From Pseudochrobactrum saccharolyticum (lineage in GTDB: Bacteria > Pseudomonadota > Alphaproteobacteria > Rhizobiales > Rhizobiaceae): 64,000 nucleotides of DNA. Location: the NCBI RefSeq assembly GCF_008801715.1, contig NZ_VZPG01000005.1, forward strand, positions 124,001-188,000, given 5' to 3'. Below are positions 5,741 to 46,502 of this stretch, piece after piece. Within the stretch, counting starts at the first letter, position 1. Each line of letters starts with the position of its first letter. The translations under genes were made by a program, and so were the position numbers. A model generated the notes under the pieces. The model was given only the letters and a program-made list of their open reading frames with translations, was not told the origin of the DNA and searched no databases.

Positions 5741-6156
5741 TCGCGCACTCCTCAAAAGCAGTCTTGTGGCCTGAGATTCCGGCCTGTGCTCTGCACAGTA
5801 TCTGACGGAAAATGGTAAGACTGCATATATTTTATGACATGCCAATGCACTCAGCCCATACAGAAAAAGGCGGAAGTGAATACTCACCCCACCTTAAAGC
5901 TGTTTTCCAGCGATGCAAACATATCTGTATGGTCAACTTTTACAATAAAGCTTCATATTACATCAGTTCTCAAAAACCGGCATAATAAGCCTGAAAAGCT
6001 GGCCTGAACGCAAAGCAAAACGCATGACCCTGAGATCATGCGCTGCTTAATCAGTATATCTGATCAGAAACGACGCAGCCTGTAGCCACGCGTTCAGTCT
6101 GATTAACCGGTCGCCAAGCGACCCGTTAATTAGCGGGCCGCTACGCGACTTGTTAC
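5741..6156. other. Gap between TPR gene and rpsU
   Basis: Nearest the TPR gene lies its probable promoter region, with no clear -35/-10 pair. The rpsU-proximal half holds the rpsU terminator (6012-6042) and two extra copies of the rpsU 3' end (6103-6156), described separately. I see no further gene. Confidence 0.6.
6012..6042 (-). terminator. Terminator of rpsU
   Basis: CGCATGA (6021-6027) pairs with TCATGCG (6036-6042). On the minus strand the stem is followed by TTTTGCTTT. It lies about 115 bases past the rpsU stop, beyond the tandem 3' copies. Confidence 0.75.
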
Positions 6157-6183
6157 TTAACGAGCCGCTACGCGGCCGCCGCC
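6103..6183 (-). repeat. Three 27-bp tandem copies of the rpsU 3' end
   Basis: Copies lie at 6157-6183 (in the gene), 6130-6156 and 6103-6129, exactly 27 bases apart and in frame with rpsU. On the minus strand they read as codons GGGRVAAR-stop, VTSRVAAR-stop and LTGRLATG-stop. Each can form a short hairpin: GCCGC-GTA-GCGGC, GTCGC-GTA-GCGGC (one G-U pair) and GTCGC-TTG-GCGAC. The series passes from C-G through U-G to U-A at one pair. A more decayed fourth copy near 6076-6095 is possible but uncertain. Confidence 0.75.
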
Positions 6184-6387
6184 TACCAGACCTTCACGCT
6201 GTGCGCGCTTACGAGCCAGCTTGCGTGCACGGCGAACGGCTTCAGCCTTTTCGCGGGCGCGCTTTTCAGATGGCTTTTCATAATGACCGCGCATTTTCAT
6301 TTCGCGGAAAATACCTTCACGCTGCATCTTTTTCTTAAGAGCGCGGAGAGCCTGATCAACATTATTATCGCGTACGAGTACCTGCAC
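6157..6387 (-). CDS. rpsU: 30S ribosomal protein S21
   Basis: Small-subunit protein S21, which sits near the anti-Shine-Dalgarno region of 16S rRNA and helps initiation. It has 76 residues, the usual alphaproteobacterial length, beginning [19 protein letters not shown]; the middle [19 protein letters not shown] and the Arg/Ala-rich tail are diagnostic. The start codon is GTG at 6387. The 3' end is unusual: the last codons with the stop are repeated twice more downstream at a 27-base period. The upstream 548 bases contain no gene. Confidence 0.96.
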
Positions 6388-30601: not shown

Positions 30602-31765
30602 ATGAGCGATAGCCCTGTAGCAGATCAGGTTGCGACTGGCGCAACCACACTCCCTAAAATTCCGGTTACCGTGCTGACCGGCTATCTCGGCTCCGGCAAG
30701 ACCACCCTGCTCAACCGCATTCTCAGCGAAAACCACGGCAAACGCTATGCTGTCATCGTCAATGAGTTCGGTGAAATCGGCATTGATAATGATCTCATCG
30801 TCGAGTCCGATGAAGAAATCTATGAAATGAACAATGGCTGCATTTGCTGCACCGTGCGCGGCGATCTGATCCGCGTGGTTGAAGGTCTGATGCGCCGTCC
30901 GGGTCGTTTCGATGCGATCATTGTGGAAACCACCGGCCTTGCCGATCCGGTACCGGTTGCCCAGACATTCTTCATGGATGATGATGTGCGTGCCAAAACC
31001 CAGCTTGATGCTGTGGTCGCCCTTGTTGATGCCAAACATCTGCCGCTACGTCTGAAAGACAGTAAAGAAGCCGAAGACCAGATCGCTTTTGCCGATGTGG
31101 TCCTGCTCAACAAGACCGATCTCGTTAATGCGCAGGAACTTAGCCATGTCGAAGCGACAATCCGTGCCATCAATCCGCATGCGATTATTCACCGTACCCA
31201 GCGCGCAGAAATTGATCTGACGAAAGTTCTCGATCGCGGTGCTTTTGATCTCCAGCGTGCGCTGGAAAATGATCCGCATTTCCTCGATCATGATCATCCG
31301 GATCATGTTTGCGGCCCTGACTGCGATCACGACCACGGGCACGATCATCATCACCATGACCACGGACACGACCATCATGGTCATCACCACCATCATGATC
31401 ACGACCATAGCTGCGGCCCAGATTGTAATCATGACCATGGGCATGACCACGGCCATGCTTCAGCGATCCACGATGTAACGGTTATGTCCGTATCCTTGCG
31501 CACCGGCGAGCTGGATGCTGCGAAATTCTTCCCGTGGATTCAGAATGTAACCCAGGTTCAGGGGCCGGATATTCTGCGCCTCAAAGGTATCATCGCTTTT
31601 GCCGGTGACGATGACCGCTATGTGGTACAGGGCGTGCATATGATTATCGAAGGCGATCACCAGCGTCCTTGGAAACCGGACGAAAAGCGCGAAAGCCGTC
31701 TGGTCTTTATCGGTCGTAATCTGAATGAGCAGGCACTGCGTTCCGGCTTCGAGAAATGCAAATAA
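30602..31765 (+). CDS. COG0523 (CobW/G3E) GTPase with a His-rich metal-binding insert
   Basis: A 387-residue G3E GTPase. Walker A is [12 protein letters not shown] at residues 27-38, the metal motif is GCICCT (Cys80, Cys82, Cys83), and NKTD at 170-173 gives guanine specificity. Residues 230-290 are an extreme His/Asp stretch framed by two CGPDC motifs (237-241 and 271-275). The CobW C-terminal domain follows. COG0523 proteins act as metal chaperones, many in zinc starvation (ZNG1-like), and the insert could hold several Zn or other ions. No clear Zur box was seen upstream. A WD40 gene follows two bases after the stop, as recalled in related bacteria. Confidence 0.92.
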
Positions 31766-38558: not shown

Positions 38559-39251
38559 GTGACCGAAGCAGAACTGGCCGTCGCAAAAGAAGCAGAGAAA
38601 TATGCAGCACTTGTTGCCGAGGGTAAGGCTCTCTTCAACAAGCGATGGATTTTTATCCGCGGCGTGCCGTCAATGAAATTTCTGCCGCCGGAAGGCCCTG
38701 TTGAAATCGCTTTCGCCGGTCGCTCCAATGTCGGCAAATCCTCGCTGATTAATGCGATTGTCGGCCAGAACGGCTTGGCACGCACATCCAACACACCGGG
38801 TCGTACGCAAGAGCTCAACTATTTCGTGCCGGATGGTTATTCCGGTGAAAATGGTGACCTGCCGCCTTTGGCACTCGTGGATATGCCAGGCTATGGTTTT
38901 GCCGAAGCACCAAAATCCATGGTCGATGCATGGACACGACTAGTTTTTGATTATTTACGCGGCCGTACCACGCTGAAGCGTGTTTATGTGCTGATTGACG
39001 CTCGTCACGGCATTAAAAAGAATGATGCTGATGTGCTGGATCTTTTGGATAAAGCCGCTGTCTCTTACCAGATCATTCTCACCAAGATCGACAAGATCAA
39101 GGAAGCAGGCGTCCCGCGCCTGATGGCGGAAACTCAGAAAGCGATTGCGCGCCGTCCGGCCGCTTTCCCGCAGATTCTCGCCACATCCTCCGAAAAAGCC
39201 ATCGGCTTTGATGCAGTGCGCGCTGCGATTGCCCTGCTGACCAAGGAATAG
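38559..39251 (+). CDS. engB: Ribosome biogenesis GTPase EngB (YihA/YsxC)
   Basis: A 230-residue GTPase needed for large-subunit assembly. It starts at GTG 38559 with AGGAAG upstream. G1 is GRSNVGKSS, the G2 Thr lies in [13 protein letters not shown]3 is DMPGYG, and G4 is TKID. The gap to argB holds only a short GAACCAC / GTGGTTT hairpin (39252-39270). Confidence 0.96.
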
Positions 39252-39275
39252 GAACCACGCAAGGTGGTTTCTTTA
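39252..39275 (+). terminator. Weak hairpin after engB
   Basis: AACCAC and GTGGTT form a 6-bp stem followed by TCTTTAT, directly after the engB stop. It may end or attenuate transcription ahead of argB. Confidence 0.45.
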
Positions 39276-39310
39276 TCACTCACATAACCCTTCATGCCGT
39301 GGAGTGCTCC

Positions 39311-40198
39311 ATGACCGCGACAAGCCCTGAAATCCAAGCACAACTCCTCTCAGCCGCGCTGCCATTCATGCAGCGCTATGAGAACAAAACCGTCGTCGTT
39401 AAATATGGCGGTCATGCCATGGGCGATGCGGCACTGGGCAAGGCCTTTGCCCGCGATATCGCACTGCTCAAACAGTCCGGCATCAACCCGATTGTTGTTC
39501 ATGGCGGCGGCCCGCAGATTGCAGCAATGCTGGGCAAGCTCGGTATTGAATCCCGCTTTGAAGGCGGCTTGCGCGTTACCGATGAGAAAACGGTTGAAGT
39601 GGTTGAGATGGTTCTCGCCGGTTCAATCAACAAAGAAATCGTGGCGATGATTAATGCCGAAGGCGAATGGGCTATCGGCCTGTGCGGCAAAGACGGCAAT
39701 ATGGTTTTCGCTGAAAAAGCGCACAAGACCTATCGTGATCCGGATTCCAATATTGAGCGCGTGCTTGATCTGGGCTTTGTCGGCGAGCCGGTTGAGGTTG
39801 ATCGCACCCTGCTCGATCTGCTGGCACGTTCCGCCGTTATTCCGGTGATTGCGCCGGTTGCACCGGGTCGTGATGGCAATACTTACAATATCAATGCAGA
39901 TACCTTTGCCGGTGCGATTGCGGGTGCGCTGAGCGCAACACGTCTGCTGTTCCTCACCGATGTACCGGGTGTTCTGGATAAGAACAAAAACCTGATCAAG
40001 GAATTGTCGGTTGCAGACGCACTGGCACTGATTGAAGACGGCACCATTTCTGGCGGCATGATCCCGAAAGTGGAAACCTGTATCGACGCTATCCGCCGTG
40101 GCGTTGAAGGTGTGGTTATCCTCAATGGCAAAACTCCGCATTCCGTATTGCTGGAATTGTTTACGGAGCACGGTGCCGGCACACTGATCGTGCCGTAA
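39311..40198 (+). CDS. argB: Acetylglutamate kinase
   Basis: Second enzyme of arginine synthesis; it phosphorylates N-acetylglutamate. ATG 39311, six bases after GGAG, gives 295 residues; a GTG 12 bases upstream is less likely. Amino-acid-kinase landmarks are [22 protein letters not shown] and [15 protein letters not shown] (substrate site), then [12 protein letters not shown] and [14 protein letters not shown]. The last five sense codons and stop (TLIVP-stop) reappear twice just downstream in modified form, which is unusual. A terminator follows these copies. Confidence 0.96.
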
Positions 40199-40263
40199 CT
40201 AACAATGCACACTTATTGTGCCATGAACTAAAGAGCACGCTTATCGTGCCCTAAACTAAAAGA
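40179..40263 (+). repeat. Three tandem copies of the argB 3' end
   Basis: Copies lie at 40179-40206 (within and just past argB), 40207-40234 and 40235-40263, with a period of 28-29 bases. Each contains codons for TLIVP and then a stop: ACA CTG ATC GTG CCG TAA, ACA CTT ATT GTG CCA TGA, and ACG CTT ATC GTG CCC TAA. All differences in the sense codons are at third positions. Each can form a hairpin, and copies 2 and 3 differ by a compensating pair: GCACA-CTTAT-TGTGC against GCACG-CTTAT-CGTGC. Since 28 is not a multiple of three, the extra copies are out of frame with argB. Confidence 0.8.
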
Positions 40264-40270
40264 CCTTATA

Positions 40271-40297
40271 AAAAAATCCCGCAAATTGCGGGATTTT
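40271..40297 (+). terminator. Terminator of argB
   Basis: AAAAATCCCG pairs with CGGGATTTTT around CAAATTG; both flanks allow bidirectional use. Confidence 0.9.
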
Positions 40298-40302
40298 TCT
40301 TT

Positions 40303-40350
40303 GAGCATTTCCAGCAAAAGTGGGAACCGGTTTTGCGTAGGATAATGCGT
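40303..40350. repeat. Palindromic intergenic repeat, copy A4
   Basis: Begins GAGCATTTCCAGCAAAAG and ends GCGTAGGATAATGCG. It is nearly identical to the reverse complement of copy A5 at 53236-53285, with one changed base in the shared core. Confidence 0.8.
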
Positions 40351-40362
40351 GAAAAAAATGTC

Positions 40363-41268
40363 TTATTGCCATAATAATAAGAACAGAATGCCGGTGACAA
40401 TCAGGATACAACCGGCCACTTCCATCCGGTTGATCCGCTCTTTAAAAATGAACACTGCCGAGATGAAAGTAAAAATCAGTTCGATCTGCCCAAGCGCACG
40501 CACATAGGCCACCTGCTGCAAAGCCATAGCTGTAAACCAGCCCATTGATCCCAGTACGCTGGACAGGCCAACCAGCGATGATGAGCGCCATGATTTCAGC
40601 ACCAGAACAATCTCATTCTTGTCCTTAATCAGCATCCAGACCAACATGAAAGCTGTCTGGAATGTCGTCACACAGGCCAAAGTTACCGCTGCCTGCATGA
40701 TCGGATTTGGACCGTCCAGCGACAGTGCTGCGGAGCGATAAGCCACGGCGGAAATACCGAATACACCACCCGAAGCAATACCGATCAAAGCTGTACGACT
40801 GACCAGCGCTTTAAACAGATTGCCCCAGCTTAACGGCATACGCGCGACCGAAATCAGCATCACACCCAGTACACCAACAATAATTGCCAGAACGGCACCG
40901 GTTGTCAGGCGTTCGCCAAGCAGGATCAGGCCAAAGATTGCCGCCTGCACGGGCTCGGTTTTGGAATAGGCCGTGCCCACTGCAAAGTTGCGCAGGGTAA
41001 ACAAATAAACCAGCATGATAGTGGCGAAGATCTGTGCCAGCCCGCCGACAACACTCCAGAACAGGAATGCACCATTAAGCTGCGGCAAAGCAAAACCAGC
41101 AAAGAAATGCAGTCCCAGCACATAAAGAATGGCGACAGGAAAACCATAACCAAAGCGTACAAAGCTTGCGCCTCTGGTGCCGAGCTTGCCTTGCAGTTTC
41201 TTTTGCAGTGTCGTGCGCACATTCTGCATAAAGGCAGCGGCAATTGTAATCGGTATCCAGAGTTCCAT
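40363..41268 (-). CDS. EamA/DMT-family transporter
   Basis: A 301-residue inner-membrane protein with about ten hydrophobic segments, made of two EamA-type halves. ATG 41268 gives a normal start (MELWIPITIAAAF); the longer frame adds 24 unlikely residues. GTAYSKTEPVQAAIFGLILLGERL and ALGQIELIFTFISAVFIFKERI are the EamA signature ends of each half. Such proteins export amino acids, nucleosides or other metabolites; the substrate is unknown. Confidence 0.87.
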   Translation of the reverse strand: MELWIPITIAAAFMQNVRTTLQKKLQGKLGTRGASFVRFGYGFPVAILYVLGLHFFAGFALPQLNGAFLFWSVVGGLAQIFATIMLVYLFTLRNFAVGTAYSKTEPVQAAIFGLILLGERLTTGAVLAIIVGVLGVMLISVARMPLSWGNLFKALVSRTALIGIASGGVFGISAVAYRSAALSLDGPNPIMQAAVTLACVTTFQTAFMLVWMLIKDKNEIVLVLKSWRSSSLVGLSSVLGSMGWFTAMALQQVAYVRALGQIELIFTFISAVFIFKERINRMEVAGCILIVTGILFLLLWQ

Positions 41269-44270: not shown

Positions 44271-45125
44271 ATGTCCCAGCCTGATCTGTCAGCTCTCGAA
44301 AAAATTATCACAAAAGCTTTTGATGAGCGTGACACAGTCTCGGTATCTACCACCGGAGAAATCCGTGATGCCGTCGTACAATCCCTCTTGCTGCTCGATC
44401 AGGGTAAAGTACGTGTTGCCGAAAAACAGGCAGACGGTAACTGGACAGTCAATCAGTGGCTGAAAAAAGCAGTTCTGCTTTCCTTCCGTCTTAACCCGAT
44501 GGAAATCATCAAAGGTGGTCCGGGCGCATCCGTCTGGTGGGACAAAGTCGCTTCCAAGTTTGACGGCTGGTCTGCCGACGAGTTTACACAGGCCGGTTTC
44601 CGCGCCGTGCCAAACTGCGTCGTACGTCACTCCGCTTATATTGCACCAAATGCCATTCTGATGCCGTCTTTTGTCAACCTCGGCGCTTATGTCGGTGAAG
44701 GCACGATGGTTGATACATGGGCAACTGTCGGCTCCTGCGCTCAGATCGGCAAGAATGTCCATCTGTCCGGCGGCGTCGGCATCGGTGGTGTGCTTGAGCC
44801 GCTGCAGGCCGAACCAACCATCATCGAAGACAATTGCTTTATCGGCGCCCGTTCGGAAGTTGTGGAAGGCTGCATCATCCGTGAAGGTTCGGTGCTTGGT
44901 ATGGGTGTCTATATCGGCAAATCCACCAAAATCGTCGACCGCGCCACCGGCGAAGTCTTCTACGGCGAAGTACCACCCTACTCAGTTGTTGTTGCCGGTA
45001 CTATGCCGGGTAAACCACTGCCAAATGGTGAAGCAGGCCCGAGCCTTTATTGCGCCGTTATCGTTAAGCGCGTTGATGAGAAAACCCGCTCGAAAACCTC
45101 AATCAATGATCTGCTGCGCGATTAA
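44271..45125 (+). CDS. dapD: 2,3,4,5-tetrahydropyridine-2,6-dicarboxylate N-succinyltransferase
   Basis: Enzyme of the succinylase branch of lysine and diaminopimelate synthesis. It has 284 residues, with the α-helical N-terminal part and a left-handed β-helix of hexapeptide repeats (about 105-250: [31 protein letters not shown] and onward). [25 protein letters not shown] is the typical core. AGGAG precedes the ATG. dapE lies about 1.4 kb downstream, separated by the DUF680-like triplet on the other strand. Confidence 0.96.
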
Positions 45126-45196: not shown

Positions 45197-45412
45197 TTAA
45201 CGACGGGTGCTTGCAGGCGAATGATCGTCAAAGCCGTTAGCGGAACCGTCACTATAGGTTTCGGTCTGTGTGCTGGTTACAGTCGCAGTCGCAGTTACAA
45301 ATGTCTGGTCAGCACCATACAGATTGTCTGGAATACCGGCATTTGGATTTTCAGCAAAAGCAGCACCGGCAGTCAGAGCAAGAGCGGCAACAGTCAAAGC
45401 AATCTTTTTCAT
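45197..45412 (-). CDS. Small exported DUF680-like protein, copy 1
   Basis: A 71-residue protein: signal peptide KKIALTVAALALTAGAAFA, then about 50 mature residues beginning ENPNAGIPDNLYG. The second ATG is chosen because AAGGA lies eight bases before it and only two before the first. It resembles small DUF680 proteins of Hyphomicrobiales; function unknown. This is the most diverged of three tandem copies: its mature part differs from copies 2 and 3 at many positions, while the signal peptide is unchanged from copy 2. A hairpin, CCGTC / GACGG, straddles its stop codon. Confidence 0.78.
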   Translation of the reverse strand: MKKIALTVAALALTAGAAFAENPNAGIPDNLYGADQTFVTATATVTSTQTETYSDGSANGFDDHSPASTRR

Positions 45413-45534
45413 TTTCATATTCCTTTTATAGGCCGGTCATTTTCAACGGATCAGTTGGGAGGTCTGTTCATCAGACGTTGAAATCCGGCTGTCATTCATA
45501 ATGTTGATATTATGCGGAACAGGTACCGGCTAAA

Positions 45535-45750
45535 TTAGCCGTTATAGCTGGATGGTGAATTATCACCGAAACCGTGAGCCGAACCGTCAGTAAAGGTTTC
45601 AGCCTGCGTGCTTTTCACGGTTGAAGTGGTAATCACAGGTGTCTTGTCATTGCTGTACAGATCATCAGGAATGCCAACATTTGGATTTTCAGCAAAAGCG
45701 GCACCGGCGGTCAGAGCAAGGGCGGCAACAGTCAAAGCAATCTTTTTCAT
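45535..45750 (-). CDS. Small exported DUF680-like protein, copy 2
   Basis: A 71-residue paralogue: same signal peptide as copy 1, mature start ENPNVGIPDDLYSNDKTP and end GFGDNSPSSYNG. It is almost identical to copy 3. AAGGA lies eight bases before the chosen ATG. A CGGCTA / TAGCCG hairpin (45527-45541) overlaps the stop codon. Probably periplasmic; function unknown. Confidence 0.8.
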   Translation of the reverse strand: MKKIALTVAALALTAGAAFAENPNVGIPDDLYSNDKTPVITTSTVKSTQAETFTDGSAHGFGDNSPSSYNG

Positions 45751-45872
45751 TTTCATATTCCTTTTATAGGCCGGTTATTTTCAACGGATCAGTTGGGAGG
45801 TCTGTTCATCAGACGTTGAAATGCGGCTGTCATTCATAGTGTTAATGTTATGCGGAGGAGGTACCGGCTAAA

Positions 45873-46088
45873 TTAGCCGTTATAGCTGGATGGTGCATTA
45901 TCACCGAAACCGTGTGCGGAACCGTCTGTAAAGGTTTCAGCCTGCGTGCTTTTCACAGTTGAAGTGGTGATCACAGGTGTCTTGTCATTGCTGTACAGAT
46001 CATCAGGAATACCCGCATTTGGGTTTTCAGCAAAAGCTGCTCCGGCAGAAAGAGCAAGTGCAGCAACAGTCAAAGCAATCTTTTTCAT
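45873..46088 (-). CDS. Small exported DUF680-like protein, copy 3
   Basis: A 71-residue paralogue, differing from copy 2 at only three positions (one in the signal peptide, one near the mature start, one in GFGDNAPSSYNG). It is the first copy in the direction of transcription and has its own upstream region. The CGGCTA / TAGCCG stop-codon hairpin is repeated at 45865-45879. Function unknown. Confidence 0.8.
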   Translation of the reverse strand: MKKIALTVAALALSAGAAFAENPNAGIPDDLYSNDKTPVITTSTVKSTQAETFTDGSAHGFGDNAPSSYNG

Positions 46089-46502
46089 TTTCATATTCCT
46101 TGTTCAATTTATGTGAACGTGCTTGGGAGAAGCGCCGTTCCGATGACCCTGAGATAGGAGCCATTGTTTAGGATTTCAACTCACATAAATTTTACGAATA
46201 AATAAAAATTCTGACACAATCTTTCCTTGAAAAAACAAGGAACACATATCAACTCAATAAAATCAATAACTTAATAGTTTAAAAATTCGGCAGATATTTC
46301 AATATTCGCTGTATCGTTCTCTAAATAGAGACATTCCGTTCGTTGTATCGTTCCCAATTGATGAACAATAACAGTTTTATCACAATATTATTACCGGCTG
46401 TTACAGTGCTGTTTTTGGAATTAGATACCGGCAAATCACACAGTGACTCATCAAAGATAGATTCCAGATGCGCCAGCTTGCGGCATCTGCTAAGCCTTGT
46501 GC
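46089..46502. other. AT-rich divergent gap between the DUF680-like array and dapE
   Basis: About 410 bases, strongly AT-rich, likely holding promoters for the small-protein array and dapE. Structures seen are a TTCCTTG / CAAGGAA hairpin (46223-46242), a perfect TCTCTAAATAGAGA palindrome (46318-46331) and a direct repeat TGTATCGTTC (46310 and 46344) flanking that palindrome. No gene was seen. Confidence 0.5.

What the first reader, a model, noticed from the sequence alone, without database searches (positions are those of the whole stretch)
40179..40263. Three stop-capped tandem copies of the argB C-terminus with only third-position changes and a compensating hairpin pair
Seen: TLIVP-stop is spelled three times in a row with a 28-29 base period. 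All six sense-codon differences are synonymous, and the stop changes TAA to TGA to TAA. Copies 2 and 3 swap A-T for G-C at the same stem position. Extra copies are out of frame with argB, so coding constraint is an unlikely cause; the hairpin explains only two of the changes. The design repeats that of rpsU, in another gene 34 kb away, which makes pure accident less attractive. Inference: a shared mechanism duplicates gene 3' ends together with a small hairpin ahead of the terminator.
Basis: partly seen in the sequence, partly recalled or inferred. Interest (0 to 1): 0.62.

Follow-up and report, generated by a model that had tools for sequence, protein, structure and literature searches.

The report
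Stacked spare gene ends after stops
In a little-studied group of bacteria, some genes are followed by a short row of near-copies of their own last few codons and stop codon, spelled differently but mostly with the same meaning, which suggests that gene ends are repeatedly replaced and the old ones left behind.

Summary
The window lies in a Pseudochrobactrum genome. argB is followed by two extra copies of its last codons plus stop (spacing 28, 28); rpsU shows the same design. In about 27% of this genome I found 12 such genes. At score 14 or more, 9 of 671 stops hit, against 1/671 shuffled, 0/623 inside genes and 1/647 upstream of starts. Of seven families followed through the genus, six have arrays in most genomes, with varying copy number; one (perm) in 1 of 7. 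In this genome copy 1 and the first downstream copy differ by 17 synonymous and 2 non-synonymous codons (12 genes); a free-drift model gives about 39% synonymous. Yet the copies' frames are not kept open, and the hairpin fades from copy 1 to copy 4; argB shows no covariation beyond shuffles. In four families one species' gene end matches another's downstream copy far better than any gene end. Best reading: palindromic gene ends are duplicated or exchanged again and again, and displaced ends decay downstream. How the synonymous divergence arises is unproven.

The parts
39311..40198 (+). argB (acetylglutamate kinase, 295 aa), the gene whose end is repeated
   Evidence: NCBIfam TIGR00761 above its cut-off
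40179..40198 (+). copy 1: real argB end, TLIVP-stop (TAA), stem GGCAC/GTGCC (first G at 40178)
40199..40206 (+). A-rich spacer 1
   Evidence: same or one base different after copy 1 in L012 and L008 and after copy 2 in L011
40207..40226 (+). copy 2: TLIVP-stop (TGA), frame +1
40227..40234 (+). A-rich spacer 2
40235..40254 (+). copy 3: TLIVP-stop (TAA), frame +2
40265..40305 (+). terminator-like inverted repeat with T-run after the array; a similar one follows argB in the other six genomes of the genus (by reading)
6157..6387 (-). rpsU (30S ribosomal protein S21)
   Evidence: TIGR00030 above its cut-off
6157..6177 (-). rpsU copy 1 (real end, GRVAAR-stop)
6130..6150 (-). rpsU copy 2 (SRVAAR-stop)
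6103..6123 (-). rpsU copy 3 (GRLATG-stop: palindrome kept, peptide lost)

Best explanation
The arrays are stacks of present and former gene ends. Shown: at genes whose last codons tend to form a palindrome, a unit of mostly 26-32 nt that spans the stop codon is present in 1 to 6 tandem copies; copy number varies between species; the unit next to the gene body is the working end; in four families the working end of one species matches a downstream copy of another. Inferred: the palindrome promotes duplication (template switching or slippage in replication or repair); unequal exchange, probably also between diverged lineages, puts a different, synonymously spelled end onto the gene and leaves the previous end downstream, where it loses hairpin and peptide. 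Downstream copies therefore look coding because they were gene ends, not because they are translated now. I propose no present-day function for the extra copies.
For: Enrichment at stops: 9/671 against 1/671, 0/623 and 1/647; earlier, smaller sample 8/574 against 0/574, 1/530 and 1/548. Tandem Repeats Finder on 864 kb: 31 arrays of period 18-45 nt, 6 over a stop, 16 inside called genes, 9 outside called genes, one of these a stop-capped array of an uncalled gene. Orthologs with more than one copy: argB 7 of 7 genomes, rpsU 5 of 6, aroC 6 of 6, gdh 6 of 6, hyp 6 of 6, fad 5 of 7, perm 1 of 7. Coding-phase divergence: first downstream copy 17 syn: 2 non in this genome (12 genes); over ten families (the genus plus argB of G022) 69:20 for copy 2 with a codon-blind boundary, and for all downstream copies 125:55 in frame against 4:144 and 29:121 in the two other frames; free-drift simulation 0.386 (sd 0.046) against 0.736 observed, family bootstrap 0.56-0.85. 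Stops kept in 77 of 85 downstream copies. Decay with distance: copies 3+ 56:35 against 69:20 for copy 2, Fisher p 0.024; hairpin z -2.11, -1.15, -0.58, -0.37 for copies 1, 2, 3, 4+ (n 46, 37, 29, 12) and -0.36 for 168 stops of this genome. Role exchange in rpsU, aroC, fad, perm. Between G000 and G006 the last 6 codons of array genes have 17 of 42 synonymous changes, the 6 codons before them 2 of 42; in 117 non-array ortholog pairs of G001-G005 the end is not faster (0.132 against 0.135).
Against: The divergence stops sharply at the unit edge, so no imported tract of gene body is visible; exchange between lineages rests on role exchange, on post-stop flanks that do not always follow the gene body (short, gapped alignments) and on the failure of the simple duplication model. 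Of 45 gene ends 30 are closest to another species' gene end, 7 tie and 8 are closest to a downstream copy, 4 of these by a wide margin. Three of ten families (rpsU, aroC, lea) are not above 50% synonymous for copy 2. Downstream copies compared with each other are less biased (47:54). In rpsU later copies keep the palindrome and lose the peptide, the reverse of the general trend. The near-constant unit length is unexplained, and the phosphodiesterase array (36-37 nt) lies outside it. 'Core' codons were chosen after looking; remove that choice.
Confidence: 0.5

Rival explanations
1. Ordinary clonal slippage: a palindromic gene end is duplicated in tandem and the extra copies drift as non-coding DNA.
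For: Some arrays hold identical copies (aroC in L205: copies 1-3 identical); palindromes at array ends; variable copy number; rpsU, aroC and lea are near the free-drift value.
Against: In strictly clonal duplication the downstream copy has been non-coding since it split from copy 1; simulation then gives 0.386 synonymous (maximum of 400 runs 0.543), observed 0.736; 17:2 in this genome alone.
Confidence: 0.2
2. The extra copies are under present selection as spare or multi-frame C-termini, for instance for ribosomes that slip or read through.
For: Peptide and stop kept with synonymous spelling; in argB of this genome the three copies fall in three different frames.
Against: Spacing modulo 3 is close to even (24/29/32); the frame of the copy is closed by a stop within 10 codons upstream in 41 of 78 copies, much like the two other frames (47 and 41 of 78; for copies at a multiple of 3 the gene's own stop counts as closing); argB copy 2 is preceded in its frame by TAA CAA TGC; decay with distance.
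Confidence: 0.12
3. RNA hairpin arrays protecting the mRNA 3' end or aiding termination, like REP elements after stop codons.
For: RNA of the argB array folds better than shuffles (z -4.77; the stretch includes the terminator); a terminator-like repeat follows in argB; rpsU later copies keep the palindrome.
Against: Mean hairpin strength falls to background by copies 3-4; no covariation at argB; conservation is in codon phase, which an RNA stem does not explain.
Confidence: 0.12
4. Mutation hot spot: the palindrome of copy 1 is rewritten often by template switching, only synonymous rewrites survive, and copy 2 drifts slowly.
For: The last six codons of array genes have 40% synonymous change between G000 and G006 against 14% in the body (boundary); paired changes such as GAG..ATC to GAA..ATT in the hyp family.
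Against: A fresh copy 2 carries the same palindrome and should be equally hot; argB shows no covariation excess.
Confidence: 0.15

Closest known systems
Variable-number tandem repeats (minisatellites) formed by slippage or unequal recombination
   Same: Direct tandem units, copy number differs between related genomes
   Different: Placed over stop codons, gene-specific units of nearly constant length, divergence in codon phase
REP / BIME / REPIN palindromes (PMC2817692, PMC3116915, PMC3733652; only search listings and abstract starts seen)
   Same: Small palindromes after coding regions, in tandem
   Different: No shared genome-wide sequence seen: the argB array finds itself and only short weak matches in its genome (best 31 nt, E 1.43)
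Quasi-palindrome template switching (PMC3820800, PMC8604942; search listings and abstract starts seen)
   Same: Palindromes as substrate, clustered changes
   Different: That process is described as making the arms of one inverted repeat alike; here whole ends are present in tandem
Intergenic TAACTGA direct repeats of Beggiatoaceae (PMC4679880; search listing and abstract start seen)
   Same: Sets of short direct repeats in intergenic DNA
   Different: One heptamer shared by many loci, not copies of each gene's own end
Homology-facilitated illegitimate recombination (recalled; a search was run, no paper opened)
   Same: Could join a foreign gene end to the resident one
   Different: No imported gene body seen

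Membership tests
Tandem repeat (VNTR) locus | Head-to-tail direct copies | tested here: met
Tandem repeat (VNTR) locus | Copy number varies between related genomes | tested here: met
   argB 2-4 copies over 7 genomes of the genus, aroC 2-6 and rpsU 1-4 over 6 (single chance matches beyond 130 nt in L197 and in five of the six hyp loci are left out of later counts)
Tandem repeat (VNTR) locus | Extra copies drift without coding constraint | tested here: not met
   (three of ten families near free drift)
REP / BIME / REPIN | Shared palindromic consensus dispersed in the genome | tested here: not met
   for argB; units differ from gene to gene
REP / BIME / REPIN | REP-associated tyrosine transposase gene in the genome | not tested
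   not searched
Intrinsic terminator | GC-rich hairpin followed by a T run, for the repeat units | tested here: not met
   by reading: argB units are followed by A-rich spacers; the separate repeat at 40265-40305 has the T run
Any Rfam family | Match above gathering score | tested here: not met
   10 weak matches, none reaches its gathering score (window 39000-41000)
Functional RNA stem | Covariation in the stem | tested here: not met
   argB copies only, 22 sequences; other families not tested

The most novel reading that the evidence does not exclude
A regular process in Pseudochrobactrum keeps fitting new, synonymously spelled ends onto genes and pushes the old end downstream, so that each array is a time-ordered record of the gene's past ends (newest next to the gene), written by an as yet unknown recombination or replication step with a preferred length of about 28 nt.
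Probability: 0.3. Interest if true: 0.78.

Novelty: new variant of a known kind. Interest (0 to 1): 0.58.

Why it matters
If right, the 3' ends of ordinary genes (argB, aroC, pheA, rpsU and others) are evolutionarily mobile: swapped as small cassettes while the protein stays the same. It would give a natural, ordered record of end replacement, a local cause of fast synonymous change that misleads rate estimates near stop codons, and a system for finding what makes duplications of about 28 nt at palindromes.

Tried and rejected
Chance: rejected. Known RNA family: none. A dispersed element: none for argB. Conserved hairpin in the extra copies: rejected for argB by pair counts and in general by fading z-scores, with rpsU as an exception by reading. 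Translation of the extra copies: not supported. Clonal duplication with free drift: disfavoured by simulation. A universal spacer motif: A-rich spacers occur in argB, fad, hyp and lea but not in perm or apr, so no common recombination site is claimed. Rows dropped by reading: at score 12 or more in G000, 15 of 671 stops, of which 5 were rejected (L131, L142, L144 and two in C1a: terminator overlap or no stop-capped unit); lea (score 11) was added because its G003 ortholog scores 16, and the phosphodiesterase gene because it was not called. A row (L125, score 26, a repeat about 100 nt downstream) was not seen as stop-capped and falls outside the shorter reach used from then on. In G022, two of three rows at score 13 or more are octamer repeats; G021 had 2 of 285, neither a clear array by reading. 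Other genomes at score 13 or more: G005 3 of 164, G003 4 of 134, G001 1 of 135. Among the 109 usable argB loci of relatives, 18 score 9-11 and were not counted; one, L053 (Ochrobactrum sp.), may hold a worn second copy. Spacings of the phosphodiesterase array (36-37 nt) are not in the 85. Seven literature searches (open-access PMC papers only) gave no listing, among the rows shown, that describes stop-capped arrays of gene ends; no paper was opened.

Full report
What is there. argB (39311-40198) ends in TLIVP-stop; the same 20 nt, with synonymous changes only, follow twice more at 28-nt steps, then a terminator-like repeat. rpsU on the other strand shows the same design at 27-nt steps. The window is G000:C5:124001-188000 of a 3.76-Mb genome. 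A genome of the same genus, G005, has argB at the coordinates of the Pseudochrobactrum asaccharolyticum DSM 25619 record L038, so the genus is Pseudochrobactrum.

Is it more than two cases? I took stretches covering 1.004 Mb of this genome and compared the 33 nt around each stop with 80 nt downstream. At score 14 or more there are 9 hits among 671 stops, against 1 of 671 with shuffled downstream DNA, 0 of 623 positions inside genes and 1 of 647 mirrored tests upstream of starts. By reading, all nine are stop-capped duplicates of the gene end: argB, rpsU, aroC (chorismate synthase), a glutamate-dehydrogenase-like gene, an FAD oxidoreductase ('fad'), pheA (prephenate dehydratase), an unnamed protein ending EIISRV ('hyp'), an unnamed protein ending QKCR, and a gene ending GGMGGMDF that I take to be groEL (from its tail, recalled, not tested by a family search; its extra copy is 75 nt away, the least certain case). 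Three more were accepted at lower score or outside called genes: an ABC permease ending FVPDR ('perm'), a gene ending LAEA ('lea'), and an RNA 2',3'-cyclic phosphodiesterase gene with at least four units at 36-37 nt (names). A further family, ending AAAPRD ('apr'), is seen in G001, G003 and G005. In the neighbouring-genus sample G022 (400 kb) argB itself has an array of three copies and one other gene a short 18-nt duplicate; in G021 (400 kb) I saw no clear case. Among 110 argB loci from relatives, 109 with enough downstream DNA, 8 score 12 or more: seven are Pseudochrobactrum rows (L037 and L038 repeat the genomes of L011 and L012) and one is G022. Two further Pseudochrobactrum loci with a second copy, L008 and L013, fall below that score.

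Anatomy. Over ten families, 84 of 85 spacings are 26-32 nt (one is 75), spread nearly evenly modulo 3 (24/29/32). Copy number in orthologous genes changes between species: more than one copy in argB 7 of 7 genomes, rpsU 5 of 6, aroC 6 of 6, gdh 6 of 6, hyp 6 of 6, fad 5 of 7, perm 1 of 7. Array genes have stronger hairpins around the stop than the other genes sampled (mean -10.5 against -4.8 kcal/mol). The hairpin is strongest in the gene end itself and falls to the level of other stops by copies 3-4.

Codon-phase divergence. The copies were found by nucleotide identity (at least 14 of 21 to a known copy). With the compared stretch set by a codon-blind rule, copy 2 differs from copy 1 by 69 synonymous and 20 non-synonymous codons, later copies by 56 and 35; read in the two wrong frames the pairs together give 4:144 and 29:121. 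These pairs come from related genomes and are not independent. In this genome alone, one pair per gene, it is 17:2 over 12 genes, and 11 of 12 first downstream copies keep a stop. A model in which the downstream copy drifts freely and copy 1 is held by its protein gives 0.386 synonymous (sd 0.046, 400 runs; observed 0.736 over 41 distinct pairs). Comparisons between downstream copies alone are weaker (47:54 in frame, 8:91 and 23:82 in wrong frames). Families differ: rpsU, aroC and lea are at or below one half for copy 2.

Why not translation. In 78 downstream copies of seven families the reading frame of the copy is closed upstream about as often as the other frames (41, 47, 41). For argB copy 2 a TAA stands three codons before its ACA codon in the same frame.

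Role exchange. With 12 nt before the stop and 24 nt from it, 30 of 45 gene ends are closest to another species' gene end, 8 to another species' downstream copy and 7 tie. Four of the 8 are clear: rpsU in G003 (32 of 36 to copy 2 of G001, 20 to any end), aroC in G001 (34 to copy 2 of G005, 28 to any end), fad in G005 (31 to copy 2 of G001, 23), perm in G006 (35 to copy 3 of G000, 22). The other four lead by 1 or 2 bases. So a unit can be the end in one genome and a leftover in another. In the close pair G000-G006, array genes have 17 of 42 synonymous changes in the last six codons and 2 of 42 in the six before; for G001-G005 the numbers are 13 and 5 of 42; in 117 non-array ortholog pairs of G001-G005 the end is no faster than the codons before it. 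The change stops at the edge of the unit.

Interpretation. The working end of these genes is replaced as a unit, and old ends stay downstream and decay. Duplication at a palindrome explains the birth of a second copy. It does not by itself explain synonymous divergence, since the downstream member of a clonal pair has never been coding since the split. Unequal exchange between arrays of diverged lineages would: it sets one lineage's end in front of another's. A sign of exchange within the genus exists (the fad gene of G006 is closest to G001 although its six other genes compared are closest to G000), but I could not show it at the arrays themselves. Alternatives are listed with their weights.

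Known kinds. It is a tandem-repeat locus by anatomy and fails one expectation of such loci (free drift of the extra copies). It is not a REP-type element by the one defining feature tested, a shared consensus. Seven literature searches over open-access papers listed nothing that describes it among the rows shown; that is not proof of absence.

Noticed in passing
L037 (contig JAHREI010000007.1): A public record titled Bacillus subtilis strain SK6B4 carries an argB 98% identical to this one, at the coordinates of G001: the record looks mislabelled.
   Followed up: no
window 45234-46101: A 338-nt unit repeated 2.6 times (89% match); the only closed ORF of 250 aa or more near it ends before it, at 45125.
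   Followed up: partly
window 40306-40352: A palindrome-like sequence (GCATTTCCAGCAAAAGTGGGAACCGGTTTTGCG...ATAATGCG) that recurs after other genes, e.g. in L124, and after argB in several species.
   Followed up: no
L159:18975 and 19125: Two converging genes of G022 each end in a tandem octamer that holds the stop codon (GGGAATAG and GGGAGTAA).
   Followed up: no
L130:5480-5565: Three 33-nt tandem palindromes (CAAGTTGGGTCAACTTG and relatives) in non-coding DNA, apparently inside a dispersed element.
   Followed up: no
L220 (G006), FAD oxidoreductase gene: Gene body closest to G001 (0.962) while the six other genes of G006 compared are closest to G000: likely exchange between species.
   Followed up: no
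window 31332-31407: Histidine-rich coding repeat (CAT/CAC runs) in the gene called at 30602-31765, perhaps a metal-binding protein.
   Followed up: no
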